Assembly: GCF_001008165.2 (NCBI RefSeq)
Contig: NZ_CP011452.2
Coordinates: forward strand, 806,001-870,000
Direction of reading: 5' to 3'
Source of the DNA: Croceibacterium atlanticum
GTDB lineage: Bacteria; Pseudomonadota; Alphaproteobacteria; Sphingomonadales; Sphingomonadaceae
Length of the DNA stretch: 64,000 bases
A program made the translations under genes and the position numbers. Under the pieces are notes generated by a model, which saw only the letters and a program-made list of their open reading frames with translations, made no database searches and was not told where the DNA came from. Positions 19,876-35,043 of the stretch are shown one piece after another; within the stretch, counting starts at the first letter, position 1, and the number at the start of each line of letters is the position of its first letter.

Positions 19876-19890
19876 TGGTACGGAGGAGGG
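19876..19890 (+). other. Degenerate att-like copy of the tRNA-Met 3' end
   Basis: TGGTACGGAGGAGGG matches TGGTAGCGGAGGAGGG at the tRNA 3' end (34,967 onward, same strand) with one base missing. Direct repeats of a tRNA end are what site-specific integration leaves at the far side of an element. The rest of the tRNA is absent here. Confidence 0.5.
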
Positions 19891-19950
19891 GTCCACCAAT
19901 CTCGCTTAAACAGCTGTTAAAAAGTCATTTCTCTATCAGCTTCGCCAAAA

Positions 19951-19970
19951 ATACCCCCTGTGATACCCCC
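19951..19970 (+). repeat. Two ATACCCCC motifs, 12 bases apart (left end of element)
   Basis: ATACCCCC occurs at 19951-19958 and 19963-19970. The same doublet occurs at 34823-34841 next to the integrase start. Read on the minus strand this stretch also resembles the integrase 5' leader (GGGGGTATTTTTGGCGAAG against GGGGGTATTTTCGCGGAG). It is either a pair of integrase arm-type sites or a relic of a second integrase leader. Confidence 0.45.
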
Positions 19971-20085
19971 AGCTTGGGACCTTTGCGATGAGCGGAAATT
20001 CGATCGCGGCAAACCGTTCACTTACCCCGAGTAGTGGGCATTCACTTCGCAACTTGGCGTATGTCGCAGGCAGCTTAGCTCCCAC

Positions 20086-20700
20086 TCACGACACCTGAGA
20101 TCCAATCCAGATCACTCTGCCGACGACATTGATCGCCTTTCGCTGAACACCGTTCCAGCTTGGATAGGCGGGATGGTCGGTCAGGACAGAAATGCGATTT
20201 TTGGTCGGATCCAGAGCGATCCGCCTGACGAACGTCTCTGACGATCCCCGGACAGCGTAGAGCCCGTCTTGAAGGGCATCGTGAGAGCGCAGCCTTTGGA
20301 TTATGACTTCGTCGCCATTCTGCAGGGTCGGCTGCATAGCCTCACCAGCAATGGGTAAGATCGCCAAACCTGCAGGCCTGTTGCATAGGCGTCTTAGCCA
20401 GGCTTCATCGACGATCCGAGATCGTTCCTGTGCGATTTCCAAGCCCTTGGCCTCAATTACCGGCACAGTGATGACCGAACGTCGCGGAGTTGAAGAACTC
20501 TCTTTTCCGCCGAGCAGTTTGGCAGGAACGTCGAAATGCAGAGCCAGCTGAGCGATGTCGCTTTGATCGAGACGCGCGGGCGTGCCGCGCTTGATGTATT
20601 GCTGGATATAGGCGGAGTTTCGGCCTAGCAGACGCGAAACCGCAGCGTACGTCTCTTCCCGCTCGCGGATCAAATCATCAAGCGCTTGCCTTGGGGTCAT
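20086..20700 (-). CDS. XRE/S24-like repressor with non-catalytic peptidase domain
   Basis: This encodes 204 residues from the ATG at 20698-20700, with AGGAG eight bases upstream. A GTG three codons earlier is less well placed. The N-terminal 60 residues are a helix-turn-helix for operator binding (ETYAAVSRLLGRNSAYIQQYIKRG). The C-terminal half is a LexA/CI-type S24 domain (AGLAILPIAGEAMQPTLQNGDEVII... DGLYAVRGSSETFVRRIAL). The catalytic Ser of the G-x-S-M-x-P motif is Ala121 here, and the catalytic Lys is Arg159. The repressor should dimerise but not self-cleave. It lies at the left end of the element and may control its transfer genes. Confidence 0.85.
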   Translation of the reverse strand: MTPRQALDDLIREREETYAAVSRLLGRNSAYIQQYIKRGTPARLDQSDIAQLALHFDVPAKLLGGKESSSTPRRSVITVPVIEAKGLEIAQERSRIVDEAWLRRLCNRPAGLAILPIAGEAMQPTLQNGDEVIIQRLRSHDALQDGLYAVRGSSETFVRRIALDPTKNRISVLTDHPAYPSWNGVQRKAINVVGRVIWIGSQVS

Positions 20701-20721
20701 CCTATCCACTCCTAGCGTATC

Positions 20722-20820
20722 CTATTCCACTATCACGCCCGAGCGGACAATTCCTACTCGGCGAGTTGCGCGGGCCAACCTAAGTTGGGCTTTCTGGATA
20801 GGTTTCGAAGGAGGCGCTGG
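20722..20820 (+). other. Structured leader of the IS110 transposase, candidate bridge-RNA region
   Basis: Two short perfect hairpins lie in the non-coding stretch before the transposase: CCGAG/CTCGG at 20739-20743 and 20757-20761, and CCAAC/GTTGG at 20775-20779 and 20784-20788. IS110-family elements are known to carry a bridge RNA in a non-coding end. Which end is used differs by subgroup, and I cannot fold the RNA here. Confidence 0.25.
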
Positions 20821-21942
20821 TTGGTTTATCAGCACTACTGGGTGGGGCTCGATGCGGGGCATCTCGAAACAGCCGTTTGCCTCATCGACGCAGAGGGCGT
20901 GATCCTCTTTGAAGCGATATGCGAAACGAAATCCGGTCCCATCAGAGATATTCTGCGGAGGTTTGGCGTCGAGGCAGCGCAGTGCCTCACGATCGAGGCC
21001 GGCAATGGCATCCAGATGGTTCGAGAACTGCGTGCATACGGATTTCCTGTTCAGGTTGTCGATGTACGCAAATCGAGCAAGTTCCTGGCAATCAGGCGAC
21101 AGAAAACAGATGTCCACGATGCGCGAGGGCTCGCAGAGCTCGGGCGGCTCGCTCGATCGATGGGGTCGCAGGTTTTCGTGAAGCCGATGGAACATCAGAA
21201 TATCCGAACCCTGATCAATGTTCGGAGAACAATGCTGAAGAACCGCGCCAGGACCGATGCGCTCATCCAATCGATTTTCAGGTTATACGGCGGGAACGTG
21301 AAACTCCTGAACGGAAGGGGTGCGCTAGCCGCCGAGGTGAACGACCAGGTGCGGAAAATGCGACAGCACGGGCTTGAGATCGGGGTCAATCTGCAACCGC
21401 TCGTCGAGATTTCCGAGGCTCTGAGAGAGCAGATCTCCATTCTTGACCGGCAGATGCGCGACATCGCATCGAACAATCCTACATGTCGCAATTTCCAGAC
21501 GATCCCAGGCGTCGGAGCTGTGATCGCGCTTTCGTTCTACAGTGCCATCGGCGATCCACATCGATTTGAGCGGAGCCGTGACGTTGGAGCATACTTGGGC
21601 CTGACCCCAACCCTATATCAGTCAGGCGCCACTTCACGCCGGGGGCGTATCAGTCGGCACGGGAACAAGCTGACACGGATGCACCTGATTACCGCTGCCA
21701 CCGTGCTACTTTGCAGGATTGAGATCGAAAGCCGTCTTCGCACCTGGGGTCTCGAGCTGGCCCAGCGGGTTGGGTTCCTGAAGGCGCGCGTTGCAGTGGC
21801 CAGGAAGCTTGCGGTGATCATGCTCGGAATGTGGAAATCAGGTTCACCGTTTCGCCCAGACGGCACCCCTTCGCTTTTCCTCCAGCAGGAGGAGGCAGGC
21901 TTGGACCCCGTTCTGATTTCTGGGACGCAGATCTCGTTGTAG
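20821..21942 (+). CDS. IS110-family transposase (DEDD recombinase)
   Basis: This encodes 373 residues from a TTG at 20821 with a strong AAGGAGG six bases upstream, which decides the start. The RuvC-like N-terminal domain shows the DEDD residues: WVGLDAG, LTIEAGNG and KTDVHDARGLAEL. The C-terminal half is the transposase_20 domain with the conserved Ser region (FQTIPGVGAVIALSFYSAIG... AYLGLTPTLYQSG). Such enzymes move DNA through a serine-dependent, RNA-guided mechanism and leave no inverted repeats. Element ends are therefore not obvious. The gene lies directly upstream of the S24 repressor gene and may separate it from its promoter. The reading frame is complete and may be active. Confidence 0.93.
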   Translation: MVYQHYWVGLDAGHLETAVCLIDAEGVILFEAICETKSGPIRDILRRFGVEAAQCLTIEAGNGIQMVRELRAYGFPVQVVDVRKSSKFLAIRRQKTDVHDARGLAELGRLARSMGSQVFVKPMEHQNIRTLINVRRTMLKNRARTDALIQSIFRLYGGNVKLLNGRGALAAEVNDQVRKMRQHGLEIGVNLQPLVEISEALREQISILDRQMRDIASNNPTCRNFQTIPGVGAVIALSFYSAIGDPHRFERSRDVGAYLGLTPTLYQSGATSRRGRISRHGNKLTRMHLITAATVLLCRIEIESRLRTWGLELAQRVGFLKARVAVARKLAVIMLGMWKSGSPFRPDGTPSLFLQQEEAGLDPVLISGTQISL

Positions 21943-22017
21943 GTAATTGGGCCAAGTCTGCCATGACCAATTCGATCATTTGCGCCAACAGACATGACGG
22001 CGTCCGCAATCGATAAT

Positions 22018-22065
22018 GTGTCAAAGTTGACGCATTAAGCCGCAAAACCGGCTTACGGTGTCAAA
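22018..22065 (+). repeat. Hairpin flanked by GTGTCAAA direct repeats
   Basis: GTGTCAAA occurs at 22018-22025 and 22058-22065. Between them TAAGCCG (22036-22042) and CGGCTTA (22049-22055) form a perfect stem with a 6-base loop. It lies between the IS110 transposase stop and the next gene. It could be part of the IS110 right end or a regulatory site of the downstream gene. Confidence 0.4.
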
Positions 22066-22109
22066 ATCGCATCATTATAGCAGTAGCCGAAATAGGTCTG
22101 ACGGACAAA

Positions 22110-22742
22110 ATGACTCTCTCGCGCCTCCGGAATATCGTGAACCTCGCTGTGCCTACGCTTTTTCGCCAGATCAATGGTGGGCGAGTACGATGCGAAAGCG
22201 AGGCGACGCTTCAGCTACACCTCGGCCGCATAATTTCGTTGGCCGCCGATCTCGAGATTATCAGCGAGCGAGAGACGTTTTCCGTCGAACTCGAAAAACC
22301 TTTGCGGAACCACGGAGGCAAACGCGGGCGGATAGACGTCTGGTTCCGCCTAACGGACGATGACGGTCGCCAATGGCGCTGCGCCATCGAGATCAAGTTC
22401 TTCAAGCGGGAAAACCACCGCGAACCAAACAATCGTTACGACGTGTTCAAGGACATCGCCCGGCTGGAGCAGTGCGCAGATGTCGCGGATCTAGGGTTCA
22501 TGTTGGTGGCGACCGATCATCGACATTATGTCGACCAGACAAGCTATTCCAGCGACACGAGCGATTTCGATTTTCGCCATGAGCGAGAATATGCCGCAGG
22601 AAACGCCCTTACCTACAAAACCGGCGCGTATGGGCCACCGATTACCCTCGCTGGGAATTATGCGTTTCGCTGGTCAGAGTGCACCTCCGCGCTCCCATAC
22701 TTGCTAGTCGAGGTTCCCCCGATCCGGCTTGGCCCCGCCTGA
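22110..22742 (+). CDS. Unknown protein with PD-(D/E)XK nuclease-like motif
   Basis: This encodes 210 residues. The central part has the restriction-endonuclease-like pattern GRIDVWF (Asp76) followed by WRCAIEIKFFKREN (Glu94, Lys96), on two predicted beta strands about 18 residues apart, with a helix before it (LQLHLGRIISLAADL). This D...ExK layout is the hallmark of PD-(D/E)XK nucleases. The rest (LGFMLVATDHRHYVD) fits the same alpha/beta fold. No family name comes to mind. The gene stands alone and converges with a truncated helicase, so a defence role is possible but only inferred. Nuclease activity is likely but not certain, since some relatives are inactive. Confidence 0.6.
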   Translation: MTLSRLRNIVNLAVPTLFRQINGGRVRCESEATLQLHLGRIISLAADLEIISERETFSVELEKPLRNHGGKRGRIDVWFRLTDDDGRQWRCAIEIKFFKRENHREPNNRYDVFKDIARLEQCADVADLGFMLVATDHRHYVDQTSYSSDTSDFDFRHEREYAAGNALTYKTGAYGPPITLAGNYAFRWSECTSALPYLLVEVPPIRLGPA

Positions 22743-22771
22743 GAAATTGACACTCAAACAAACCGAACCAA

Positions 22772-25049
22772 TCACGGTTCGAGCTTGATCTGCAATTCTT
22801 CTAGAGCAGCCACGTCGACGCCCTCGTCAACGAGACGGTCAAGATAAGCCAGCAGGTCGTCTTGCCGCGGCTGACCAAATGCCAGCCGGTAGAGTGTCAG
22901 GCTGCGTTTGAGCCAACGTAGCCGCGTGTTTTCTCGACTCATCGGTAGCATTGGTACGCGGCGCTCGACCTTTACCGGACCATCAAAAACCCAGTACGGG
23001 ACAAGTTCGGATTTGCTTGTCGTCGCGCGCTTGGCCGCGTTGAACATCGCCTCCCATGGGTCCGCAGGTGGCTTTGTAGAAGTGCGGATTGCATCGGCGT
23101 GTGCCCGGGCAACATTATGCCGGACCGCATGTCCTTTGAACCGGTGAACACGCCCTTCCCTTTGCTCAAGATCGACCGGGTTCCCCGGGAGATTCCAGTG
23201 GTAGACTCGATAGCAATAGGGATGAAAATCCAAGCCTTCCTGACCAATCGATGTCGTGGCCAGCACGAACGGTCTGAAAGGCGAATTGAACGCATCGCGC
23301 ACGCTTCCGAGCCGCACGGTTCCGCCTTCATCATCCTTGTATTCAGCCAATCGCATAGCGAAGCGACCGCGCAACCTGATGGACGGATGAAAGACGACCT
23401 TGCCGTCCTCAACTCCCACATCATCGACATCAATCTGGGAGGGGCGGACTGACAAGGCGTGGGTCATGGCTGCGGCCACGCCGGCGACACGTTCACGCTC
23501 GGAGCTCCCGGCCAAACCCTCGCCTTCGACGAGATAATGGGCGTACTCGTCGAGCACCGACTGGAGGTTGTGCTCGACACCATGCGTCAATGCGCTGCGC
23601 CAGTAGTGGTCATCGCGCTCTTGCCGTAGGAGAGCAACGGCGTCGTGTTGATTGAAGAGCGCCCGAAAACCCCAGGCGACTGATGCCGCGGCGTCCATCA
23701 AATGCGGGTCATCCCAAGCCAGTCCTGGCGCAATGCGATGGAGCGCGCGCAATGCACAGACAGCCGGACTTCCCAAGGCTACATCGACCAGCAGATCCAG
23801 CGTGTCGTTGTCGAGCTCCCCCAGCGTTGCCTCGGTTGCAGTCCTTCGCAACTCGGCGATGTGTTCTCGAAAGCCTTCCTCCTGGATCGTCCATCTGTAA
23901 CCCAGATACTGCAGCCACCCGGAAGACTTGGTCTTCAACAATACGTCGATCGTTGCCGGCGTGGACCATTCTGCATCCCTGCCAGCTGCTTCTCCGCCAT
24001 TTCCCTTGGCGAACAGGTGCCCCAGTGCAGCACGAATACGATCCGCAATCGCTGCGCGCATTTCGGCAACCGACAATTGTTCCGGAGCGCCAGAAAACAC
24101 GCTGAGCGGATCACAGATTCTGGCCAGTGTTGGTGACGGATAGATCAGGTGTAGCGCGCGCATCGCAGCCGGGCGACCATCGACCAGCTTGAACTGAAGC
24201 GGACGGCGGCGCGTGGCTTCCGAGTAGGACCGAACCACCGACGCTGCCCCCATCCGCCGTTCGGCTTCGTAGGAAAGCAGTGCGGCAAGCGCATCGGGCA
24301 CCATCTGCCATGCAGAAAAGACAAGCGCTTTCGTAGCCGGTGTGCCCTCAGATGCTGGGCCATAGTATGTGACCGCTGGGGGAAGCCAGAGGTGCTGATG
24401 GAGCCCTGAATCAAACAAATCAGCCATCAACGCTCGAAGGCGCCCATTAGCCGGATCAATCGGCTGATAAGCTTCGACCTGTTCGCGACGGATGCCCAGC
24501 GCCTGCGCATCGCTCAACGCTGATATCAGGGCCCGGTTCGAATTTGCGGCTTTATCCTTCAGGCGATGCTTAAGCGTGTAATCACGCATAAAATTCAGGA
24601 GGTAAGGGGCGGACTTCCAATACTCGATGATTTCGCGCGCATCGACGGCTCGCGCTACGCGGGCAAACGCTTCGGCCTGATGGAGATCGGCAGGTGCGAG
24701 CGGCACGTTGATCGATGGCTCAGCCAGCATCGAATCTCGCTCAGCCGTACTGCCAACGCGCTCGGTGCGCGCCATAACGCGCTTCAGTGTACGCTGAACC
24801 TTGTTGCGCGCGCGCTTCGCGTCGGTCGCGCTAGACGGCAGTTGCTGGAGTAGCTTACGGAAGCGGCGCATTTCGCGGTCAAGTTCGACCTTGATGGTCG
24901 CCCCCTTATCGCGGCCGTAGAGGAACTCGATTGTTTCGAGGAAGTCCTCGTAGTGATCGCCGTCATCGGGCTCATCGCCCGAAAGCGTGAGCATCTTGTA
25001 GGGAGTTGCGGAGAGTAGAAGGGTACGTGCGCTGGCTGTATCGTCAGAA
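22772..25049 (-). pseudogene. Superfamily 2 helicase, C-terminal part only (5' end removed at IS21)
   Basis: The open frame on the minus strand begins at the IS21 inverted repeat and gives about 758 residues. It opens inside the helicase core at motif III (TLLLSATPYKML) and continues through ALVFSAWQMVPDALAALLSYEAERR. A second RecA-like domain follows, with ATTSIGQEGLDFH and motif VI EQREGRVHRFKGHAV. The Walker A and DEAx-box half is missing, and its place upstream is taken by the insertion sequence and a different gene. Large helicases of this type occur in phage-defence loci, but I cannot assign a named system. The remnant cannot be an active ATPase. Confidence 0.8.
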
Positions 25050-25134
25050 TGTTGATTTCCACTGAGAGCTGACCCGGGATTTCCATCGAGAATTGACCCG
25101 GGTGGGTATTATGTCCCGCTGTGCGGGCGGTGGG

Positions 25135-25914
25135 TCAAGCGGGTGATTTTTCCTTTCTGGATTTGGGCGCTGCCGAACTGGCGCGGAAGCGGAAGCTGTC
25201 GTTTCCGGTTTCGAGGATGTGGCAGTGATGGGTGAGCCGATCGAGCAGCGCTGTGGTCATCTTGGCATCGCCGAACACACCGGCCCACTCGCTGAAGCTG
25301 AGGTTGGTGGTGATGATGACGCTGGTACGCTCATAGAGCTTGCTCAGAAGGTGGAAGAGGAGCGCACCGCCTGACGGGCTGAACGGCAGATAGCCAAGTT
25401 CGTCGAGGATCAGCAGATCGAGGCGCAGCAGCCGGTCGGCAAGCTGACCGGCCTTGTTCATCGCTTTTTCCTGTTCCAGCGCATTGACCAGATCGACCGT
25501 GGCGAAGAAGCGGACCTTTTTGCGGTGATGCTCGACAGCCTGAACGCCAAGCGCGGTGGCAATGTGCGTCTTGCCGGTTCCGGGACCACCGATCAGCACG
25601 ACGTTGTGAGCCCCATCGATGAACTCGCCGCGATGAAGCTGGCGGACCATGGCCTCGTTCACCTCGCTGGAAGCGAAGTCGAAGCCGGCCAGGTCCTTGT
25701 AGGCCGGGAACTTGGCGGCCTTGATCTGGTAGGCGATGGACCGGACTTCGCGTTCGGCGACTTCGGCCTTGAGCAACTGGGAGAGAATAGGGACGGCCGC
25801 ATCAAACGCGGGTGCCCCTTGCTCGATGAGTTCGCCGACGGCCTGGGCCATGCCGTACATCTTGAGAGAACGCAGCATGACCACGACGGCGGCGCTGGCG
25901 GGGTCATGACGCAT
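25135..25914 (-). CDS. istB: IS21 helper ATPase IstB
   Basis: This encodes 259 residues from the ATG at 25912-25914, with AAGGA eight bases upstream and an 11-base overlap with the end of istA. The AAA+ core has Walker A GGPGTGKT, Walker [14 protein letters not shown], and the sensor region [13 protein letters not shown]. This is typical of DnaC-like IstB proteins that promote strand transfer by the transposase. The N-terminal helical domain ([21 protein letters not shown]) binds DNA and partner. The frame is intact and the element is probably mobile. Confidence 0.96.
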
Positions 25915-27442
25915 GACGCAGATCCTTATTCCGCAGGGTATCGTAGCGGGCGACGTTGGCCTTGGGTTCACGCTGCAAGGTCAAGGCCTGCGGGGCATCG
26001 ATTCTGGGCGGCGTGCCATCCTTGCCGTCAATCAGGCGATGCAGGATATTGAGAACATGGGTCTTGGTCGCGACGCCGGCCTCGAGAGCCAGTTCGACGG
26101 CACACAACACGGCTTGTTCGTCATGGTGCAGGACCAGCGAGAGGATTTCTACCATCTCCCTGTCGCCGCCGGAGCGCTTCAGAAGCTGGCCCTGTAGTTG
26201 CCGGAACGCCTCCGGCATCTCGGTAAAGGGGGCGCCATTGCGCAAGGCTCCCGGTTTGCGCTGGATCACCGCAAGATAGTGCCGCCAATCATAGATCGTC
26301 CGTCCCGGTTGATCATGGGATCGTTCGATGATCCGCCCATGCTCGCACAGGAGCTGCCCCTCGGCGGCAATGACGATCCGATCGGGATAGACCCGCAGGC
26401 TTACCGGCCGATTGGCGAAGGAAGCGGGGACGCTGTAGCGGTTGCGCTCGAAGGATATCAGGCAGGTCGGCGACACCCGCTTGGTGTGTTCCACAAAGCC
26501 ATCGAAGGGGCGCCCCAGTGGCATCAGGCTTGCGAGTTCGGCGGCATGCACATCAGCGATGGTGCCGGGCAGCACGCCATGCGGGATCTCTCCCCACTGC
26601 GCGATGCATTGCTCCTCGAGCCAGGCATTGAGCGCATCGATGTCCGGGAAGGCGGGCCCGGAAGGACCATGGGCCTGCCACAGTCGCCGCCGCGCATCCT
26701 GAACGTTCTTCTCGACCTGACCCTTCTCCCATCCCGCGGCGGGATTGCAGAACTCCGGTTCGAACAGGTAATGGCTCGCCATGGCTGCAAAGCGGGCGTT
26801 GACTTGCCGGGCCTTACCGCTGCCGATCTTGTCGACTGCGGTTTTCATATTGTCGAAGATTCCACGCTGCGGCACCCCGCCCAGCACCCGGAAGGCCTGG
26901 GTCATGGCATCGAACAGCATCTCATGGGTCTGGAGCGGATAGGCCCTGACGATAAAGGCTCTGCTGTGCGACAGCTTCGTATGTGCGGCCTGCAGCTTGG
27001 TCTGCTTGCCGGCGATCATGGCCCAGTCCTCGCTCCAGTCGAACTGGAACGCCTCGCCAGGCTGGAATACCAGTGGGACGAAAGTTCCACGCCCAATAGT
27101 CTGGGCGTCGCGCTGGCGGTCCGCCTTCCAGGTCCGCGCGAAAGCCGCAACGCGGTTGTAGGAACCGTCGTATCCCAAGGCCACGAGATCGACATGCATC
27201 TGCTTGACCGTGCGTCGCTGCTTGCGCGACTTGCTGGCCTCGATCCTCAGCCAGGCCGAGAGCCTCTCGGCAAACGGGTCCAGCTTGCTCGGGCGATCGG
27301 GAACCTTGAACTTCGGCTCCACCGTATCCGCCCGCAGGTACTTGCGGATCGTGTTGCGCGACAATCCCGTGCGCCGTTCAATCTCACGGATCGGGATGTT
27401 CTGCCGGAAATGCCAGCGTCGAATTACACTCAGTAACGCCAT
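25904..27442 (-). CDS. istA: IS21 transposase IstA
   Basis: This encodes 512 residues from the ATG at 27440-27442, with GGAG eight bases upstream. A helix-turn-helix ([19 protein letters not shown]) is followed by the DDE integrase core: Asp in FQFDWSEDW, Asp in [10 protein letters not shown] and Glu in [13 protein letters not shown]-terminal beta domain ([20 protein letters not shown]) completes the protein. It excises and inserts the element together with IstB. All catalytic residues appear present. Confidence 0.96.
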
Positions 27443-27539
27443 GTCGATCACTCCAGGATCTCCCGACCTGCAAGCCAGGAGAACGATCAAAACATGGGTC
27501 AATTCTCAGTGGAAATTTATGCCCCTCCCGGGTCAGCTC

Positions 27540-30500
27540 TCAGTGGAAATCAACAGCCTGGCATAGTTCGGGCACGCAATGGAGCGGAACCTCCCGGCCT
27601 AACAGCGAGCGTCCGTCTCGCGCCGAGATCCGGCTGACCCGAACATAGTCGGAAGGTAGTGTGTCCCACACCGGAAGCAGCAGGCCGGTTGCAAGGTGCA
27701 ATCGCTCGCGCTTGAGATGGGAGGCGGCGTCATCGACCTCAGCCTGCCAGAGGCGGCGAAATTCGGTTGGATCCACCGTTTCCCAGTTGCTCTCCTCGAG
27801 TTGATCGGCGGTGATGTGCCCATGCTTCAAGGGACGGACAAGCTCGAAGCGGGCCACACGCATACCTTCGTCGGTGAGCAGGCTGCGCGCTGGGACAAGC
27901 AGCCCGATCCGGCCTGAGCGCGCATTACGCAGAAGCTGCTGACGCGAACCTGAAAGGCCGTAGAACTCCTCGAGCCGTTCGAGACGCAAAGGCTTGAGCG
28001 CGCGGGCGATTTCGAGTTCCAGGAGATGCGTGGTCGCACCCGACAGCGCATCTGTGCGCAGTAGCGTGTCGGTCAGCACCTCGTAATGCTCTACCGCAAT
28101 GGTTTCGACCCCAATGTCGAGCGTACCGGCCTGGCGTGCTGCATCGATCCGCGCTTCGACTAGGCCGAGAAACTCGTCAAATATGCCGTTTTGCAAAACA
28201 ATCGGCAACGCGAGGATGCGATTGAGCCAGCGCTGGATTGTTGGCAGGTCATCGACCATCCCGCCGTCGGCTCCTTCGACCCTGAGCCCGCTCAATTCCT
28301 CAAACCGAGAAAGCGTAACGGCTTCCAGCTTGCCTGCGAACAACAGGCCGAACCAGCGGTGAAGCGCCTCCTTGGCGTATGTGCTCTCGAGATTGTCGGC
28401 AGGATCGAAGAGGTTCTGCCCACCCGTCTGGCGCTGCCCGCGGGTCAGTGCGCCGAGGCTGTCGAGCCGACGTGCAATGGTCGATATAAACCGACGTTCG
28501 CCACGCACATCGGTGGTCACCGGGCGGAACAGAGGGGCCGATGCCTGATTGGTGCGGTTGGTACGGCCAAGGCCCTGGATTGCGGCATCGGCCCGCCAGC
28601 CCGGCTCAAGCAGGAAGTGGACCCGGCGCATCTGGTTCTTTGCGGCGAGGTCGGCATGATAACTGCGGCCGGTGCCACCAGCATCGGAGAAAACGAGAAT
28701 TCGCTTTGTCCCGTCCATAAAATCTCGCGTCTCGGCGACATTGGCGCGCGGAGAGCGCGACTGGAGCACCTGGCGCCCATTGCGTCCGACGATCAGGCGG
28801 CGGGTACGGCCGGTGACTTCGGCAACCTGATCGACACCGAACCGTTCGATGATCGCATCGAGCGCCGTCGCGATCGGCGGCAAGGCACAGAGCTGCTCGA
28901 TCATGCGATCGCGCGCGGCAAGCGCCGAACGACAGAGAACAGGGGCACCGTTCTCATCACTCATTGGTTCGGACCGAGCATTGCCGTTCTCGTCCGTAAA
29001 CACGGACATCAACCGCACAGGAAAGCTTTTGGTGAGGTAATCGACCACGTATTCGCGGGGGAGAGATCGATTTCGAGTGCTTCACGTTCCGCATCGGAGA
29101 GATCAGCGAGGCGGCGGTTAAGCATGGCTTCGGCGGTCGAGACGAGTTGCACTACAACAGCGTTGCCGTCGGCAAGTGCCGTATCAATCGCAGGCAGCAG
29201 GCTCGGCAGCTTCATGGATAGAAGGAGCTGCGCGAAGAAGCGCTGCTTGGTGCCCTCAAACACCGAAAGCGCAGCCGATTTGGCACCTGAATTCAGGGTA
29301 TCGCCACTGTCAGTGTCGACGATCCGAGTTGCCTCGAGTGCCTCGCGCAGGTTGGCATGGATGATTGCCCAGGCGTCTGCATAGGCGTCATAAACCGCTA
29401 CCTGGTCGGGGGTCAGGCAATGCTCCAGAATCTCGTACTCAACTCCGGCGAATGAGAGTGCCCTCGCCGCGTACAGCCCGAGTGACTTCAGATCGCGCGC
29501 GACCAGTTCCATGGCAGCGATACCGCCATCGCGGATATCTGCGACAAAGGCTTCGCGATTGGCAAAAGCCGTCTCGGGACCCCACAGCCCAAGGCGGGTG
29601 GCATAGGCGAGATTATTGACGTCGGATGCCCCGGTCGCCGAAGCGTAGAGCACGCGGGCGCGCGGCAGCAGATTCTGGATGCGAACACCGGCAATGCCCT
29701 GCTCCGATCCCTTGACCTTACCACGTGAGCCCTCCCCGCCTGCGGCGTTGGCCATCGCATGGGCTTCGTCGAAGACGATGAGCCCGTCGAAGTCCTCCCC
29801 TGCCCATTCGAGAATCTGATCGAGCCGGGTCGCGTCGCTTCGACCCGAACGCAGTGTCGGATAAGTCACGAAGAGTATGCCCTCGCGCATCCCGATCGGG
29901 ACACCGAGCTTCCATTGGCCAAGGGGCTGGACGTCGATGGGAAGGCCGCCGAGCGCGCTCCAGTCGCGGCGGGCATCTTCGAGCAAAGCTTCGTTCTTGG
30001 AAATCCAGATGTGGCGCCGTTCGCCCCTCACCCACCGGTCGAGGATGACGGAAGCGACCTGCCGTCCTTTCCCTGCACCAGTTCCGTCACCAAGAAAGTA
30101 GCCCATGCGGTAGGCGTGCCCCTCGGCGCTCGCCTTCAAGGCGCAGCCCTTGTCGTCGGGCTCAAACCGTCCCGGCAGATCGCGGGCATGCGCGCTTGCG
30201 GCATAGATCAGGGTCTCGGCCTGCGCAGCGGATAGGACGCCCCCAGCAATGAGGCTCGACGGAAGCTGAGGCACCACTTCGGGCACGGGTGCGGTTATCG
30301 AACCCATCGCAACGGATTCGACTAGGGGGGTCGGATGCGGGACAGCATCTGCAATTGAGATCCGGCTCGGCCGGTAGGGCAAATAATGCCCAACCTGGCT
30401 TTCGATCGGCGCAGGTGCTTCGAGCGGAGTAAAATCAAGCGGCAGGATCGACGGCGCCGCATTGGTTGGATGGACCTTAAGTGGAACTGGTTTCGTCCTG

Positions 30501-31510
30501 TTCGCAACCAGCCGTAGCGGCAATGCTGGCTTGATGCCGATGCTGGGTCCCGCGGGCAGGCTTACCCGGTTAGGGAGCATATCGATCAGCAGATGAAGCT
30601 CGGCAAAGTTTGCCGGCTGGGCGATGATCGGGCTGGTACCATCCTCAGCCTTGTCGAGAATCAGGAGCCGGGATGAGATTGAGGTGCCCTGCTTGACGAA
30701 ACCGCGCTCGATCGTCGCGTTGAGACGCAACGAGACGGGACCGGCGATCCCGACAAGAAACTTCGGAAGCTCGAACCATTCGGGCATCACTGCGACCAGG
30801 CGGCCACCAAGCAGAAGGCGCTTCCAGGCAGAACGCAAGTGCCGGTCGCCAGTGCGGCTATCGTGGCCCCTCTCGATACTGTGTGAGTAGGGCGGGTTCA
30901 TCAGCACCACGCTCGGACCCACGTCGGGCGTGAGAAGTTCGTCGATCAGTTCCCCGTCAAACCCCGTGACTGTCGCCTCGGGAAACACGGTGCCCAGGCA
31001 TTCGCGGCGCAGCGGCGAAATCTCGTTGAGAGCAAGACGCGCAGCTGCCTTTGCTGCCCATACGCCCAGCATGCCGGTCCCGGCCGACGGTTCGAGAACC
31101 AGTTCATTGGCAGAAATCGCGCATGCCCTTGCAGCCACCCAGGCCAGACGGGGCGGCGTTGCGAATTGTTGCCACTCGATCTGCTCGTCACTCCGGTTGG
31201 ACTGGGTCGGGACCAGACCTTCAAGGCGTGTAAAAGCCTCATCGGCAAAGCTGGATGACATCGCAGATGAGAATTCAGTTGCCTGCGCCAGGAACAACAC
31301 CTGCGCCAATTCAAGTGCAGCATGGGCATCGCGTACGGACCAGTGTCCTTCGGCGTCGCTACCGCCGAAGTGATCAGCCATTGTTGCATTCACAGTGAGC
31401 CGCGAAATTGCTTGATCTGCAGCGAGCCGCGCGGCCAGCGTCCTCGCCGCTGCCAACACTTGCGGCTCGGCTGGATCGGAGAATGCGAAAGCGGTATTTG
31501 CGTCTGACAT
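27540..31510 (-). pseudogene. Methyltransferase / strawberry-notch helicase fusion, frameshifted and 3'-truncated
   Basis: ATG 31508-31510 has an excellent AGGAGG site. The first segment (to 29009) holds an adenine-methyltransferase-like domain (EPSAGTGMLG, then MNPPYSHS) and the helicase N half (Walker A GDGTGAGKGRQ, DEAH box LIVFDEAHAMA, motif III LYASATGAS). Near 29050 one base is missing in a CCCCCGCG run: the natural reading DLSPREYVVDYLTKSF needs one more base. The second frame (29048-27540) carries the strawberry-notch C-terminal domain (SDAGGTGRSYHADL, IQGLGRTNRTNQ). Its stop lies inside the IS21 repeat, so the true C terminus is lost. Such fusions are common on alphaproteobacterial plasmids and integrative elements. 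Their role is not established. Confidence 0.82.
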
Positions 31511-31613
31511 GGGAGACCTCCTGAAGAGGCCCTGGGTTTGTCCGGGTGTCCGTTCAGATGGATCCGTCCGGGGGCCTCACAAGGCCCCAAGCCCGCTTTC
31601 CTCTCACCGACAT

Positions 31614-32522
31614 TCAGACCGCAGCTCGGACTGAGCGCATGAGCACGTCATTCCAGTCGTCGCCGGTTAGCTCCGGACGCCTGGTGACAATCAGCCGCCC
31701 TTCGCAAGCGTAAGCCTTTCGCGCACGCTCTTCAGCAAGGCGGCCGCCCGCATCATTATCGACAAAAAGAAACAGCTGCCGCACCGATTCCGGGATTGTG
31801 GCCAGGCCGAAGCGTTCGTTTCCCAGCGTCGCCCAGCAGGGAACATTGAACATTTGCATCGCTGAGAGGGCTGTTTCGTTTCCTTCTGCGAGGCCAAGGC
31901 GTCCACCATCGGGGTACGCGAAACGCACCGCGCCAGAGCCGGGACTGCCTAACGCACGCCTAGGCTGATCGAAAGAAGCCAAGCTAGTTTTGTCGAGGTC
32001 GAGGAAGGAGCGATGCAGCGCGAGAATTCCGGCATCATTGCGCACGGCCGCGACCATCGCGGGAAGAAACCGGACAGCACTCTTTGGCCCCAGAGGCATA
32101 CGCGGGTGGAAACGCAGCTCCGGCGAAACAATCGTGATGCCTCTGGACACGAGGTACTTCTCGGCGGGGCTGCCAATGATGGTCGACGCCTCATGCCAGA
32201 GCCTCAGCGCATTGCGATTGGCGACTTCCTGGCGCGGTTCGGTCACGATCGGATCACTCGTGCCATCGAAAAGGTCCGCAATTCGTATTCCGAGCCCGGC
32301 CATGGCTTCTATCACCGCCTCGTTCGCACAGCCGGCAAAGCAATGAACGAGGATTGCACGCTTTCCGAGTGTGATGCTTAGCGAAGGAGTGCGATCGTCG
32401 TGGGCCGGGCAGCAGCACATTCCGCGCGAACGCGACCAAGCACCGCCCAGCTGCTCGACTATCTTGCGCGCGCGGTTTTCCAGTTGCAGACCTTGGAATT
32501 GGGATGATCGGTGTTGGTGCAT
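31614..32522 (-). CDS. Toprim-domain primase/DNA-processing protein
   Basis: This encodes 302 residues from the ATG at 32520-32522, with GGAGAGG five bases upstream. The N-terminal part has a zinc-ribbon-like motif (CCCPAHDDRTPSLSI then VHCFAGC), as in CHC2-type phage and plasmid primases. The C-terminal third is a Toprim domain with the conserved Glu (LGLAEGNETALS) and DxD (LFVDNDAGG). Such proteins prime or process DNA in mobile elements. The gene precedes the methyltransferase-helicase gene by about 100 bases on the same strand, so both likely share the promoter that faces the transglycosylase gene. An operator for LexA lies in that promoter region. Confidence 0.9.
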   Translation of the reverse strand: MHQHRSSQFQGLQLENRARKIVEQLGGAWSRSRGMCCCPAHDDRTPSLSITLGKRAILVHCFAGCANEAVIEAMAGLGIRIADLFDGTSDPIVTEPRQEVANRNALRLWHEASTIIGSPAEKYLVSRGITIVSPELRFHPRMPLGPKSAVRFLPAMVAAVRNDAGILALHRSFLDLDKTSLASFDQPRRALGSPGSGAVRFAYPDGGRLGLAEGNETALSAMQMFNVPCWATLGNERFGLATIPESVRQLFLFVDNDAGGRLAEERARKAYACEGRLIVTRRPELTGDDWNDVLMRSVRAAV

Positions 32523-32603
32523 GGGGGCCTCTCCATCGTAACGTGCCTCCACCCGCGCAACCTCCTCTCTGCGTCGCTGACGTTTCATTTTCCTACATCA
32601 GAT

Positions 32604-32618
32604 GTTCTATATATGTTC
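32604..32618. promoter_or_regulatory. Candidate LexA box (GTTC-N7-GTTC)
   Basis: GTTCTATATATGTTC lies in the 127-base gap between the divergent primase and transglycosylase genes. GTTC-N7-GTTC is the established LexA operator in Alphaproteobacteria, and the spacing here is exact. The AT-rich spacer could also form the -10 region of one of the two promoters. Confidence 0.6.
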
Positions 32619-32649
32619 TTTCCCGATTCGACCACCAAAGGATTTGGGA

Positions 32650-33309
32650 ATGAGACTGAAATGGGCAGTAGTTGCAGGGGCAACGACAGGATTTGGGTCC
32701 GTCCTCCCCGCTCACGCGCAGGAGATGGAGCCCCCTCAGATGACCGTTGCCTCGGAGTTGACGACCGACGGCTTCCGCGTTGCAGAAGGGACTGATGGCT
32801 TCCTGCTCGTCGAACATGGCATTTGGAGAAAGCCTCCAACGGCCTCGTCCGAGCCGCCGGCTACCGATGCGGGTCGAACCTATCTGCCCTATCGATATCC
32901 AAAGCCCCAAGGCAGCGCGCCATCGGGCTTCCGTCGGGCTAGCTACCTTCCTCATGTTTACGCTGCTGAGGCTCAATACTCGCTACCAAGCGGCCTTCTC
33001 GACGCTCTTGTATGGACGGAATCACGATATAATCCGATGGCCATCAGCAAGGCCGGGGCCGCAGGCTTGGGGCAATTGATGCCAGGGACAGCGCGGGACC
33101 TTGGCGTTTCAAATCGCTTCGATCCCAAGGCGAACATCTTGGGTGCGGCCCGATACCTACGCCAGATGCTGGACAAGTTCGGGGTGGTTCATCTGGCCCT
33201 CGCTGCCTACAACGCAGGTCCAGGTGCCGTCGAGCGCGCAGGCGGTATTCCTCGCAATGGCGAGACGCCGGCCTATGTGCGCGAAGTGCTGCGCCATTGG
33301 CGTTTTTGA
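32650..33309 (+). CDS. Lytic transglycosylase (SLT domain), mobile-element type
   Basis: This encodes 219 residues from the ATG at 32650 with AAAGGA seven bases upstream. A signal peptide ([20 protein letters not shown], cleavage near AHAQ) precedes a low-complexity linker and the SLT fold from about residue 98. The catalytic Glu124 lies in VWTESRYNP, followed by [14 protein letters not shown] and [15 protein letters not shown]. The enzyme would cleave peptidoglycan in the periplasm. In conjugative elements and phages such enzymes open the wall for DNA transfer. Divergence from the primase gene across the LexA box suggests common control. Confidence 0.92.
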
Positions 33310-33321
33310 ACGGGGGGTGTT

Positions 33322-33519
33322 GTGAGCGCGGGTCGAATACGCGTCTCGGGAATTTTAAGCCGCGGTAGACGCGGGATGTTCCTGACCACGACAGACGAAG
33401 TCGTCTGGATCATCGAGAGCGAAGAACCCGAATGCGAATTCGTCGGATCAGCGGTGATTGTCGAGGGGGTTGTCGCAGGTCGAGATCGTTTGCGCGCAGA
33501 CTGGATTGGACCGGTCTGA
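33322..33519 (+). CDS. Small protein of unknown function (possibly DUF5818-like)
   Basis: This encodes 65 residues from a GTG, 12 bases after the transglycosylase stop. The sequence alternates short beta strands (RIRVSGILSRGRRGMFLTT, VVWIIES, SAVIVEGVVAG), suggesting a small beta barrel similar in length and pattern to DUF5818 proteins of sphingomonads. It is likely co-transcribed with the transglycosylase gene. I cannot name a function. Confidence 0.55.
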   Translation: MSAGRIRVSGILSRGRRGMFLTTTDEVVWIIESEEPECEFVGSAVIVEGVVAGRDRLRADWIGPV

Positions 33520-33534
33520 TCGAAGCCATAGTTA

Positions 33535-34788
33535 TCAGGCTGCGCGCTTCCCTGCCTTCTTGATGTCGATCACCTTCCCGCCGCTCAGATAGTCAGCCCA
33601 GTCCTGCATCATCCGGCGCCGAGGAGCCAGGTATTCAGCGGCATTGTAAGCTCCACGCACGTCGTTTTTCTCCGAATGCGCGAGCTGTAGTTCGACCCAA
33701 TCCTCATGGTATTTCCTGATCCACATGGGCGGCTTACCGAACTCGACCAACTGCTCATTGGCCCAAGTGCTCGCCAAGCCCCGGAAGCCGTGTACGGTTT
33801 GGCGGCTGTGGTATCCGAGGCGATAGAGCGCGTAGATCATTGTGTTCTCTGAAAGCGGCTTGTTCGGGCCGTTGCCCGGGAAGAGAAACTCGCCAGGCGC
33901 TGCTGCTATCATGGATTTCGCGATGTGCGTTGCCTGCTGCGAGAGGGGTACCAAATGCTCTCGTCCCATCTTCATTCGCTCGGCTGGTATCCTCCAGACA
34001 GGTGATTTTCCGCCCAGGTCTTCAAACTCGGATTTGGCGGCGAAACGCAGTTCCTTGGTTCGAACCCAAGTCAGGAGCGCAAAGAGAACTGCGTCACGGG
34101 TGATCGCGGACCGTCGTTCGCCCTCTTCCTGATAGGCATGCAGCTTCTCGATGAATGCGGGCAACTCGCTGAGCGGCAGCCGGCTCATATGCTTCACTCT
34201 TGGACGCGGCTTTAGAGCCCCGCGCAAATGCGTCGTCGGATCGTTCGAGGCAAGACCACACGCGATTGCGAACTGGAAGACTTGCCCCACCCCTTGTTTC
34301 GCACGCCGGCTGATATCGAGCGCGCCTCTTGCTTCGATCTTGCGGATCATTGCCAGGACGTCGGGTGCCGTGATTTCATTCACGAGTTTCTCGCCGATGA
34401 CTGGAAAGACGTCCCTTTCCATGCGCGACCAGACGCGTTCGGCGTGCGCGGCATTCAACGCGCTCTTTCGATTTTCATGCCAACGCTTTGCGACCTCGAA
34501 GAAGGTGGCTCCTTCCTGCGAGATCACTTCTCCCTTGGATTTCATTGGATCCTTGCCCTCGGCTAGCAACGCCTTTGCGGCTGTGCGCTTGTCGCGCGCG
34601 GCAGCTATCCCGAGATCTGGGTAAGCGCCGAACGAGAGCAACTTCTCCTTGCCCGCGAAGCGGTACTTCATCCGCCATAACTTTGACCCGTTCGGCTGTA
34701 CGAACAGGAATAAGCCCTCCCCGTCGGCCATCTTGTAGGCGCGCTCGCGTGGCTTGGAATTTCGGGCCTGAATCTCCGTGAGAGGCAT
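33535..34788 (-). CDS. P4-type tyrosine integrase (DUF4102 family)
   Basis: This encodes 417 residues from the ATG at 34786-34788, with AAAGGAG upstream. The frame stays open back to 34962, so a longer start cannot be excluded. The N-terminal DUF4102 domain (ADGEGLFLFVQPNGSKLWRMKY, in part) binds arm sites, and a SAM-like core-binding domain follows. The catalytic set is visible: Arg243 (WVRTKEL), His333 and Arg336 (TVHGFRG), His371 (LAHSE) and Tyr381 (GAYNAAEY). It sits 178 bases from the 3' end of tRNA-Met and reads away from it, the standard arrangement for islands inserted into a tRNA gene. It should be functional. Confidence 0.94.
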   Translation of the reverse strand: MPLTEIQARNSKPRERAYKMADGEGLFLFVQPNGSKLWRMKYRFAGKEKLLSFGAYPDLGIAAARDKRTAAKALLAEGKDPMKSKGEVISQEGATFFEVAKRWHENRKSALNAAHAERVWSRMERDVFPVIGEKLVNEITAPDVLAMIRKIEARGALDISRRAKQGVGQVFQFAIACGLASNDPTTHLRGALKPRPRVKHMSRLPLSELPAFIEKLHAYQEEGERRSAITRDAVLFALLTWVRTKELRFAAKSEFEDLGGKSPVWRIPAERMKMGREHLVPLSQQATHIAKSMIAAAPGEFLFPGNGPNKPLSENTMIYALYRLGYHSRQTVHGFRGLASTWANEQLVEFGKPPMWIRKYHEDWVELQLAHSEKNDVRGAYNAAEYLAPRRRMMQDWADYLSGGKVIDIKKAGKRAA

Positions 34789-34789
34789 T

Positions 34790-34841
34790 GGGGGTATCGC
34801 TCCTTTCCGATACTCCGCGAAAATACCCCCAAAATACCCCC
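34790..34841. repeat. ATACCCCC motifs at the integrase start (right end of element)
   Basis: The 11-base unit AAAATACCCCC is repeated perfectly in tandem at 34820-34830 and 34831-34841. An inverted copy GGGGGTAT lies at 34790-34797, next to the integrase ATG. The same ATACCCCC doublet occurs near the left end of the element at 19951-19970. Likely functions are integrase or Xis arm binding, or control of the integrase promoter. Confidence 0.5.
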
Positions 34842-34966
34842 ACACCAAATCTGGCTGCATGTGGAAGACCATGGGCGCATGCGGACGCGAATCACCCGCA
34901 ACCCTCTGCTTTTCTTTCGATTTTTGGAAAAATGCGGAAGCTAGTGGAAGCTTCCGGATCAAGGAA

Positions 34967-35043
34967 TGGTAGCGGAGGAGGGACTCGAACCCCCGACACG
35001 CGGATTATGATTCCGCTGCTCTAACCACCTGAGCTACTCCGCC
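34967..35043 (-). tRNA. tRNA-Met (anticodon CAT)
   Basis: A 77-base cloverleaf. The acceptor strands GGCGGAG and CTCCGCT pair (one G-U), with A73 and an encoded CCA. The D arm is AGCTCAGGTGGTTAGAGC. The anticodon stem GCGGA/TCCGC holds loop ATCATAA (anticodon CAT), and the T arm contains GTTCGAGTC. It is not the initiator type, since it has a paired first acceptor position and no three-GC anticodon stem. An Ile2 (lysidine) identity is less likely but not excluded. Its 3' end is the attachment site for the neighbouring integrase. Confidence 0.93.

What the first reader, a model, noticed from the sequence alone, without database searches (positions are those of the whole stretch)
20086..20700. 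S24 repressor with both catalytic residues replaced
The LexA/CI fold is intact but the Ser of G-x-S-M is Ala121 and the Lys is Arg159. Such a protein should be unable to self-cleave, so induction of the element would need another route, such as an antirepressor, or the separate LexA box at 32604. The loss of both residues together suggests selection rather than random decay, as the rest of the frame is clean.
Basis: partly seen in the sequence, partly recalled or inferred. Interest (0 to 1): 0.5.

Follow-up and report, generated by a model that had tools for sequence, protein, structure and literature searches.

The report
Cleavage-dead repressor paired with IS110 transposase
A LexA-like DNA-binding protein that has lost the parts needed to cut itself rides beside the gene of an IS110-family transposase and probably keeps that gene switched off whether or not the cell's DNA is damaged; it is a new twist on known parts rather than a new kind of system.

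Summary
The frame 20086-20700(-) is an S24/LexA-fold regulator with Ala121 and Arg159 where Ser and Lys belong. All 23 distinct full-length sister proteins found (50-100% identity) share Ala/Arg, with synonymous codon changes; 46 of 46 rows of more distant Sphingomonadales relatives read Ser/Lys. The sisters also lack 9-10 residues where relatives carry the Ala-Gly cleavage loop, form one clade (100/100) and are under purifying selection: a conserved cleavage-dead subfamily, not decay.

It is probably not the repressor of the surrounding island. In 23 of 24 copies with a complete 5' end it is divergent from an IS110-family transposase; 8 of 8 transposases at 54% identity or more have it, 0 of 7 testable ones at 38-43% do. 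The shared intergenic region holds TAGGA boxes, also found before the Ser/Lys host paralogues. At the transposase 3' end lies a conserved RNA fold, a bridge-RNA candidate. Best reading: an SOS-deaf autorepressor of an IS110 element, derived from a host-type regulator. DNA binding, repression, mobility and RNA function are inferred, not shown. The LexA box at 32604 is at chance level.

The parts
20086..20709 (-). S24/LexA-fold regulator (GTG start; ATG at 20700), N-terminal HTH, C-terminal S24 fold without Ser-Lys dyad
   Evidence: subfamily
20338..20340 (-). Ala121 codon (GCT) at the position of the catalytic Ser
20224..20226 (-). Arg159 codon (AGG) at the position of the catalytic Lys
20431..20463 (-). 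region where 9-10 residues, including the Ala-Gly cleavage loop of Ser/Lys relatives, are missing (residues about 80-90)
   Evidence: alignment
20700..20756 (-). putative operator array: TAGGA boxes at 20700-20704, 20710-20714, 20720-20724 and 20752-20756, same orientation, steps of 10, 10 and 32 bp
20785..21942 (+). IS110-family transposase/recombinase ORF (longest frame; a start near 20821 is likelier), DEDD_Tnp_IS110 and Transposase_20 domains
21877..21962 (+). conserved structured RNA candidate (5' hairpin plus long stem closing at 21962), bridge-RNA candidate; overlaps the transposase 3' end
20066..20085 (.). stretch in which the left end of the IS110 element should lie (inferred, not mapped)
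22014..22077 (+). two palindrome-like 24-bp sites (22014-22037, 22054-22077) 40 bp apart, also beside the right end of most group a copies and some group b copies; role unknown
19876..19894 (+). imperfect copy of the 3' end of the tRNA-Met gene: probable far attachment end of the surrounding integrase island (context, not part of the module)
33535..34962 (-). tyrosine integrase of the island, beside tRNA-Met 34967-35043 (context)

Best explanation
The protein is an element-borne autorepressor that has been uncoupled from the SOS response. It descends from a Sphingomonadales family of HTH-S24 regulators that carry the full self-cleavage machinery. One lineage became the divergent partner of an IS110-family transposase and lacks the cleavage loop, the Ser and the Lys, but kept the DNA-binding helices and the TAGGA operator boxes. 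A dimer bound at the boxes between the two genes would hold down its own promoter and the transposase promoter, and because it cannot cut itself, RecA filaments would not lift this hold. Shown from sequence: the residues, the missing loop, the clade, the purifying selection, the gene pairing, the shared boxes and the RNA fold. Inferred: direction of descent (the tree is midpoint-rooted), DNA binding, repression of the transposase, lack of cleavage, mobility of the element, and that the RNA is a bridge RNA.
For: Residues and fold. Ala/Arg in 40 of 40 rows with both sites (23 distinct full-length proteins; some genomes fetched twice), Ala codons GCT 19, GCG 15, GCA 6, Arg codons AGG 33, CGT 4, CGA 3; Ser and Lys in 46 of 46 other rows. 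Loop: V-P to G-x-S/A length 40-41 in 23 of 23 Ala/Arg proteins against 46-51 in 45 Ser/Lys proteins; A-G or C-G dipeptide in 43 of 45 Ser/Lys and 1 of 23 Ala/Arg proteins. One clade, 100/100. dN/dS 0.07-0.28 in 13 informative of 15 S24 pairs, 0.11-0.29 in 11 of 13 transposase pairs. Pairing: 23 of 24 copies with a complete 5' end; 8 of 8 transposases at 54% or more have the S24 gene, 0 of 7 at 38-43% with that flank in view; no Ser/Lys locus among L002-L057 shows the transposase in the flank held. Boxes: two or more TAGGA/TCCTA in 22 of 22 distinct Ala/Arg upstream regions (1.1 expected) and in 40 of 45 Ser/Lys ones (2.0 expected, Markov-resampled control). SOS link: GTTC-N7-GTTC upstream in 24 of 45 Ser/Lys genes (0.14 expected) and 0 of 22 Ala/Arg genes.
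Against: No binding, expression or cleavage data. No sigma-70-like promoter was found in 20600-20950. The boxes lie closer to the regulator's own start codon than to the transposase, so autoregulation alone is possible. The transposase is single-copy at E<=1e-70 in the 8 genomes listed at 54% or more, which is unusual for a mobile IS; one other assembly, Porphyrobacter sp. TH134, holds two different lineages (L066, L073). No empty site was found: 0 of 397 genomes carry the two L087 flanks joined. One copy with complete S24, L069, has lost the transposase. L089 has one A-G dipeptide in its shortened linker.
Confidence: 0.66

Rival explanations
1. It is the immunity-type repressor of the whole tRNA-Met integrase island, inactivated by an antirepressor or by other SOS-linked island genes.
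For: It lies inside the island, between the att-like copy at 19876 and the integrase 33535-34962. Phage 186 CI, among the top fold matches, is switched by an antirepressor (PMC7708051, passages).
Against: The gene goes with the transposase in several contexts: beside tRNA-Met or tRNA-Lys attachment ends, and beside hipA-like genes in L087-L089 where no tRNA was found in the stretch held. In the window it sits at the end away from the integrase. The LexA box is at chance.
Confidence: 0.12
2. The S24 fold is kept for another job, such as sensing a ligand or a modification, as proposed for a cyanobacterial LexA without a dyad; it is a regulator with an unknown inducer.
For: Synechocystis LexA lacks the Ala-Gly site and the Ser and is suggested to be tuned by modification (PMC7567884, abstract and passages). 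Purifying selection acts on the gene as a whole.
Against: I identified no ligand or modification site; this is compatible with the main reading and only adds an inducer.
Confidence: 0.15
3. It is a chance passenger fixed next to the transposase, with no regulatory link.
For: Transposons pick up passengers; there are no functional data here.
Against: Tight pairing (23 of 24), matching divergence of the two proteins and boxes conserved across 50-100% identity.
Confidence: 0.05

Closest known systems
Phage 186 CI (PDB 2fjr, 2fkd, 7jvt)
   Same: HTH plus LexA/CI-like C-terminal fold, among the top structural matches; induction goes through the LexA-controlled antirepressor Tum (PMC7708051, passages).
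   Different: Prophage switch; no transposase partner. That 186 CI lacks a working dyad is recalled, not tested here.
Synechocystis PCC 6803 LexA
   Same: Lacks the Ala-Gly site and the catalytic Ser, yet is a working regulator (PMC7567884, passages).
   Different: Chromosomal regulator of many genes, not tied to a transposon; here Lys is replaced too and the loop is missing.
Gifsy GfoR/GtgR repressors
   Same: Repressors described as non-cleavable (PMC3121763, abstract and passages).
   Different: They are about 150 residues long and are inactivated by antirepressors; here an S24 domain is kept but disarmed.
IS110/IS1111 elements with bridge RNA
   Same: DEDD_Tnp_IS110 and Transposase_20 domains; structured RNA at the right-end side, as reported for the IS1111 group (PMC11208160, passages).
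   Different: A divergent S24 gene lies between the left end and the transposase; the 12 of 24 passages shown mention no such gene.
Toxin-antitoxin genes in Tn3 transposons
   Same: Accessory genes suggested to regulate the transposition module (PMC7157771, abstract and outline).
   Different: Other protein families and another transposon family.

Membership tests
Self-cleaving S24 (LexA/CI/UmuD) regulators | S24-type C-terminal fold | tested here: met
   Pfam E=5.2e-8; AlphaFold2 pLDDT 85; LexA, 186 CI and lambda CI matches, Z up to 13.0 with rmsd 2.5 over 115 residues
Self-cleaving S24 (LexA/CI/UmuD) regulators | Ser-Lys catalytic dyad | tested here: not met
   Ala121 and Arg159
Self-cleaving S24 (LexA/CI/UmuD) regulators | Ala-Gly (or Cys-Gly) cleavage loop | tested here: not met
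   linker shorter by about 9-10 residues, no A-G or C-G in this protein's stretch
Self-cleaving S24 (LexA/CI/UmuD) regulators | RecA-stimulated self-cleavage | not testable with these tools
   needs purified protein
HTH-type repressors (lambda CI, P22 c2, 434 Cro kind) | N-terminal HTH DNA-binding domain | tested here: met
   model residues 1-66 match CapH, P22 c2 and 434 Cro DNA-binding domains; no Pfam HTH model was listed
IS110 family (transposase partner) | RuvC-like DEDD domain plus Transposase_20 domain | tested here: met
   PF01548 E=2.2e-13 and PF02371 E=2.6e-22
IS110 family (transposase partner) | bridge RNA with target and donor loops | tested here: inconclusive
   conserved covarying fold in the right place; complementarity of its loops to target and donor was not tested; no Rfam match
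IS110 family (transposase partner) | defined ends and empty sites | tested here: inconclusive
   ends narrowed; no site with both L087 flanks joined in 397 genomes
Phage 186 CI-like repressors | antirepressor (Tum-like) control | not tested
   no search for a Tum homologue was made

The most novel reading that the evidence does not exclude
An RNA-guided IS110 lineage captured a host SOS-linked S24 regulator, stripped it of all three parts of its self-cleavage machinery and kept its operator code. The element-borne copy then does two things: it insulates the recombinase from DNA damage, and, since the host paralogue's own promoter carries the same boxes (own genome included), it acts as an SOS-deaf competitor that damps the host regulon.
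Probability: 0.27. Interest if true: 0.72.

Novelty: new variant of a known kind. Interest (0 to 1): 0.52.

Why it matters
As far as I know, how IS110 recombinases are kept in check is little explored, and many prophages and integrative elements link their exit to SOS (recalled). A lineage that bred a damage-deaf regulator out of a damage-responsive kind, with clear sister proteins as controls, would let one ask directly whether escape from SOS is selected. The shared operator boxes also make cross-talk between a transposon and a host regulator testable.

Tried and rejected
First idea, a 2.1-kb IS110 element with ends at 19876 and 21962: the left border turned out to match the 3' end of tRNA-Met and is probably the attachment end of the island; the left end of the IS should lie nearer the S24 stop codon. 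A reading of GCAGGC at 20066 as a terminal repeat was weakened, because in group c the comparable letters belong to the 3' end of the neighbouring gene.

Ala-Gly read off pairwise alignments looked absent from many Ser/Lys relatives; a multiple alignment reversed this, so one search is not used for the loop.

A first AlphaFold2 job with 15 close sequences gave a poor model (pLDDT 47); the second, with phage relatives added, worked. phmmer of the single protein found no solved structure. The single-protein query found no relative in viral contigs. In plasmids the S24 query gave 4 records, all under 60%, the transposase 3 records at 38-40%, and the module DNA no near match. PADLOC and Rfam gave nothing.

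Results that do not help the RNA reading: the count of further pair types was no higher than in shuffles (332 of 500); the structure came from the same sequences; the stretch overlaps coding sequence in groups a and b; only 1 of the 8 S24-less transposase loci searched gave a clear match, one more a weak one at E=0.33.

Literature: the searches listed no title or abstract on an S24 or repressor gene inside an IS110 element; the library holds open-licence papers only and I opened five papers. One search returned none.

Rows dropped before counts: from the tree and loop counts, L017, L079, rows lacking the N-terminus and identical proteins; from the box counts, regions with a missing 5' end and repeats of identical regions. 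Viral relatives (best 80 of 347) were typed only by a loose pattern: 62 Ser/Lys, 1 Ala/Lys, 1 Ser/Arg, 16 not resolved. In dN/dS the pairs WIN-L066 and WIN-L071 were left out as saturated or undefined, for both genes. L100 was left out of the transposase comparison because only 35 bases of its 5' flank are held.

Full report
What was claimed and what is there. The frame at 20086-20709 on the minus strand (GTG; ATG at 20700) encodes 207 or 204 residues. Its C-terminal half matches Pfam Peptidase_S24 at E=5.2e-8. With ATG numbering, Ala121 stands in G-E-A-M and Arg159 in F-V-R-R. A profile of the family aligned to UmuD' shows that these columns hold the catalytic Ser and Lys in that protein. AlphaFold2 with 55 sequences gives mean pLDDT 85; the closest solved folds are LexA, phage 186 CI and lambda CI.

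A conserved subfamily, not decay. Of 397 family genomes, 11 carry the Ala/Arg kind; with the GTDB contig set this gives 32 loci, in genera that include Stakelama, Novosphingobium, Croceicoccus, Sphingobium, Blastomonas, Porphyrobacter and Qipengyuania. All 40 rows with both sites read Ala and Arg (23 distinct full-length proteins; some genomes were fetched twice); 46 of 46 rows of more distant relatives read Ser and Lys. Ala is written GCT, GCG or GCA and Arg AGG, CGT or CGA, so the residues are held while the codons drift. In a tree of 68 proteins the 23 Ala/Arg proteins are one clade with 100/100 support on a long stem; the bootstrap had not fully settled and the root is a midpoint. dN/dS is 0.07-0.28 in 13 informative pairs of 15, like that of the neighbouring transposase, 0.11-0.29 in 11 pairs of 13.

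A third loss. In a multiple alignment the stretch between the V-P motif and G-x-S/A is 40-41 residues in 23 of 23 Ala/Arg proteins and 46-51 in 45 Ser/Lys proteins. The missing residues cover the Ala-Gly loop: 43 of 45 Ser/Lys proteins have A-G or C-G there, 1 of 23 Ala/Arg proteins does (L089). In LexA a Ser-Lys dyad cuts an Ala-Gly bond (as summarised in PMC7567884, passages); all three parts are missing here. That the protein cannot self-cleave is inference from this.

The true partner is an IS110-family transposase. Of 24 subfamily copies with a complete 5' end, 23 have a divergent IS110-family gene beside them; the exception, L069, departs from its relatives just after the transposase start. 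Eight further copies are cut short in the S24 gene, four of them at a contig edge, and none of the eight shows the transposase. Seen from the other side, 8 of 8 transposases at 54% identity or more have the S24 gene; of the 8 loci at 38-43%, none shows it, and 7 of these have the flank in view. No Ser/Lys locus among L002-L057 shows the transposase in the flank held, about 1.5 kb. The transposase carries PF01548 and PF02371. It is single-copy at E<=1e-70 in the 8 genomes at 54% or more; the Porphyrobacter sp. TH134 assembly holds two lineages, L066 and L073.

Where the element ends. Against eight loci the DNA match runs from about 19876 (19884 in L063 and L065) to 21962. The left border is an imperfect copy of the 3' end of tRNA-Met, whose gene lies at 34967-35043 beside a tyrosine integrase at 33535-34962. 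It is therefore probably the far end of a genomic island, not of the IS. Homology with the more distant copy L066 begins at the S24 stop codon, and in L087 the neighbouring gene is intact to within about 14 bp of that stop, as relatives without the module show. The left end of the IS is thus probably within some 20 bp of 20086. No genome among 397 had the two L087 flanks joined; 19 genomes other than the two carriers matched the left flank alone. Mobility is therefore inferred.

An RNA at the right end. The last 86 bases before 21962 fold into a 5' hairpin and a long stem (window -41.2 kcal/mol, z -3.9; z -2.0 to -4.9 in six copies). On 15 distinct sequences 97.9% of pair cells pair, and 6 of 25 pairs change on both sides; 0 of 500 shuffles reach either value, while the count of further pair types is not raised (332 of 500); sliding one column drops pairing to 52-59%. 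The structure was derived from these sequences and overlaps coding sequence in groups a and b. A covariance model found the RNA in 8 of 397 genomes: seven with the S24 partner, and G422, whose 41% transposase has no S24 gene. So the RNA may be older than the S24 partnership; but among 8 S24-less loci only that one gave a clear match. Bridge RNAs of the IS1111 group lie at the right end (PMC11208160, passages); position and shape fit, but loop complementarity was not tested.

Operators shared with the host family. The region between the two genes holds TAGGA boxes at fixed offsets (-47, -15, -5, +5 from the GTG in group a), all in one orientation, kept with losses and one-base shifts down to 50% identity. 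At least two boxes occur in 22 of 22 distinct Ala/Arg upstream regions (1.1 expected) and in 40 of 45 Ser/Lys ones (2.0 expected). The Ser/Lys paralogue of the window's own genome has them too. The DNA-reading helix region is nearly unchanged between the two groups. The simplest reading is that both kinds bind the same box. GTTC-N7-GTTC, the alphaproteobacterial LexA box (recalled), lies within 150 bp upstream in 24 of 45 Ser/Lys genes (0.14 expected) and 0 of 22 Ala/Arg genes.

Mechanism. Most likely the dimer sits on the TAGGA boxes and represses its own gene and the transposase. Without dyad and loop this hold is deaf to RecA. Steps shown: sequence, clade, pairing, boxes. Steps inferred: binding, repression, lack of cleavage. 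Against: no promoter consensus was found, and the boxes lie nearer to the regulator's own start.

The LexA box at 32604 exists, but is the only match in the window against 1.87 expected by chance, and nothing I saw links it to this protein.

Known relatives. Disarmed or non-cleavable repressors are known: Synechocystis LexA (PMC7567884), Gifsy repressors (PMC3121763), and phage 186 is switched by the antirepressor Tum (PMC7708051); I saw passages of each. What the searches did not list is an S24 regulator as the constant partner of an IS110 transposase. I rate this a new variant of a known kind.

Noticed in passing
window 22014-22037 and 22054-22077: Two palindrome-like 24-bp sites 40 bp apart beside the right end; the same pair is seen in nine group a loci besides the window and in L070, L072, L076 and L081 of group b, but not in L071, L073 or L066. 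An exact form of the core was found in only 2 of 119 genomes, both module carriers.
   Followed up: partly
window 19876-35043: A probable tRNA-Met integrase island: integrase 33535-34962, transglycosylase, Toprim protein, Strawberry-notch-type helicase pieces, and an imperfect att copy at 19876.
   Followed up: partly
window 25135-27502: An IS21-type pair apparently cuts off a helicase gene (22772-24994), whose relative in L060 is one 1065-residue frame.
   Followed up: no
L104 (G422): An IS110 transposase at about 41% identity, without S24 gene, has a matching RNA fold at its 3' end (E=1.2e-6), and a second weaker match at its 5' side.
   Followed up: partly
L002, L004, L006, L008, L013 upstream of the Ser/Lys gene: A small divergent ORF of unknown function lies opposite these Ser/Lys regulators; 24 of 45 Ser/Lys regions hold a LexA-type box.
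   Followed up: no
L089: The most distant transposase reads GRVGRFGNK where the other four shown read GRIS-type motifs, so a Ser kept in those is missing.
   Followed up: no
L063, L065, L069, L073, L076, L078, L079, L081: These copies lie near a tRNA-Lys gene; the group b left border in L081 falls inside it, so a second island family may use tRNA-Lys.
   Followed up: partly
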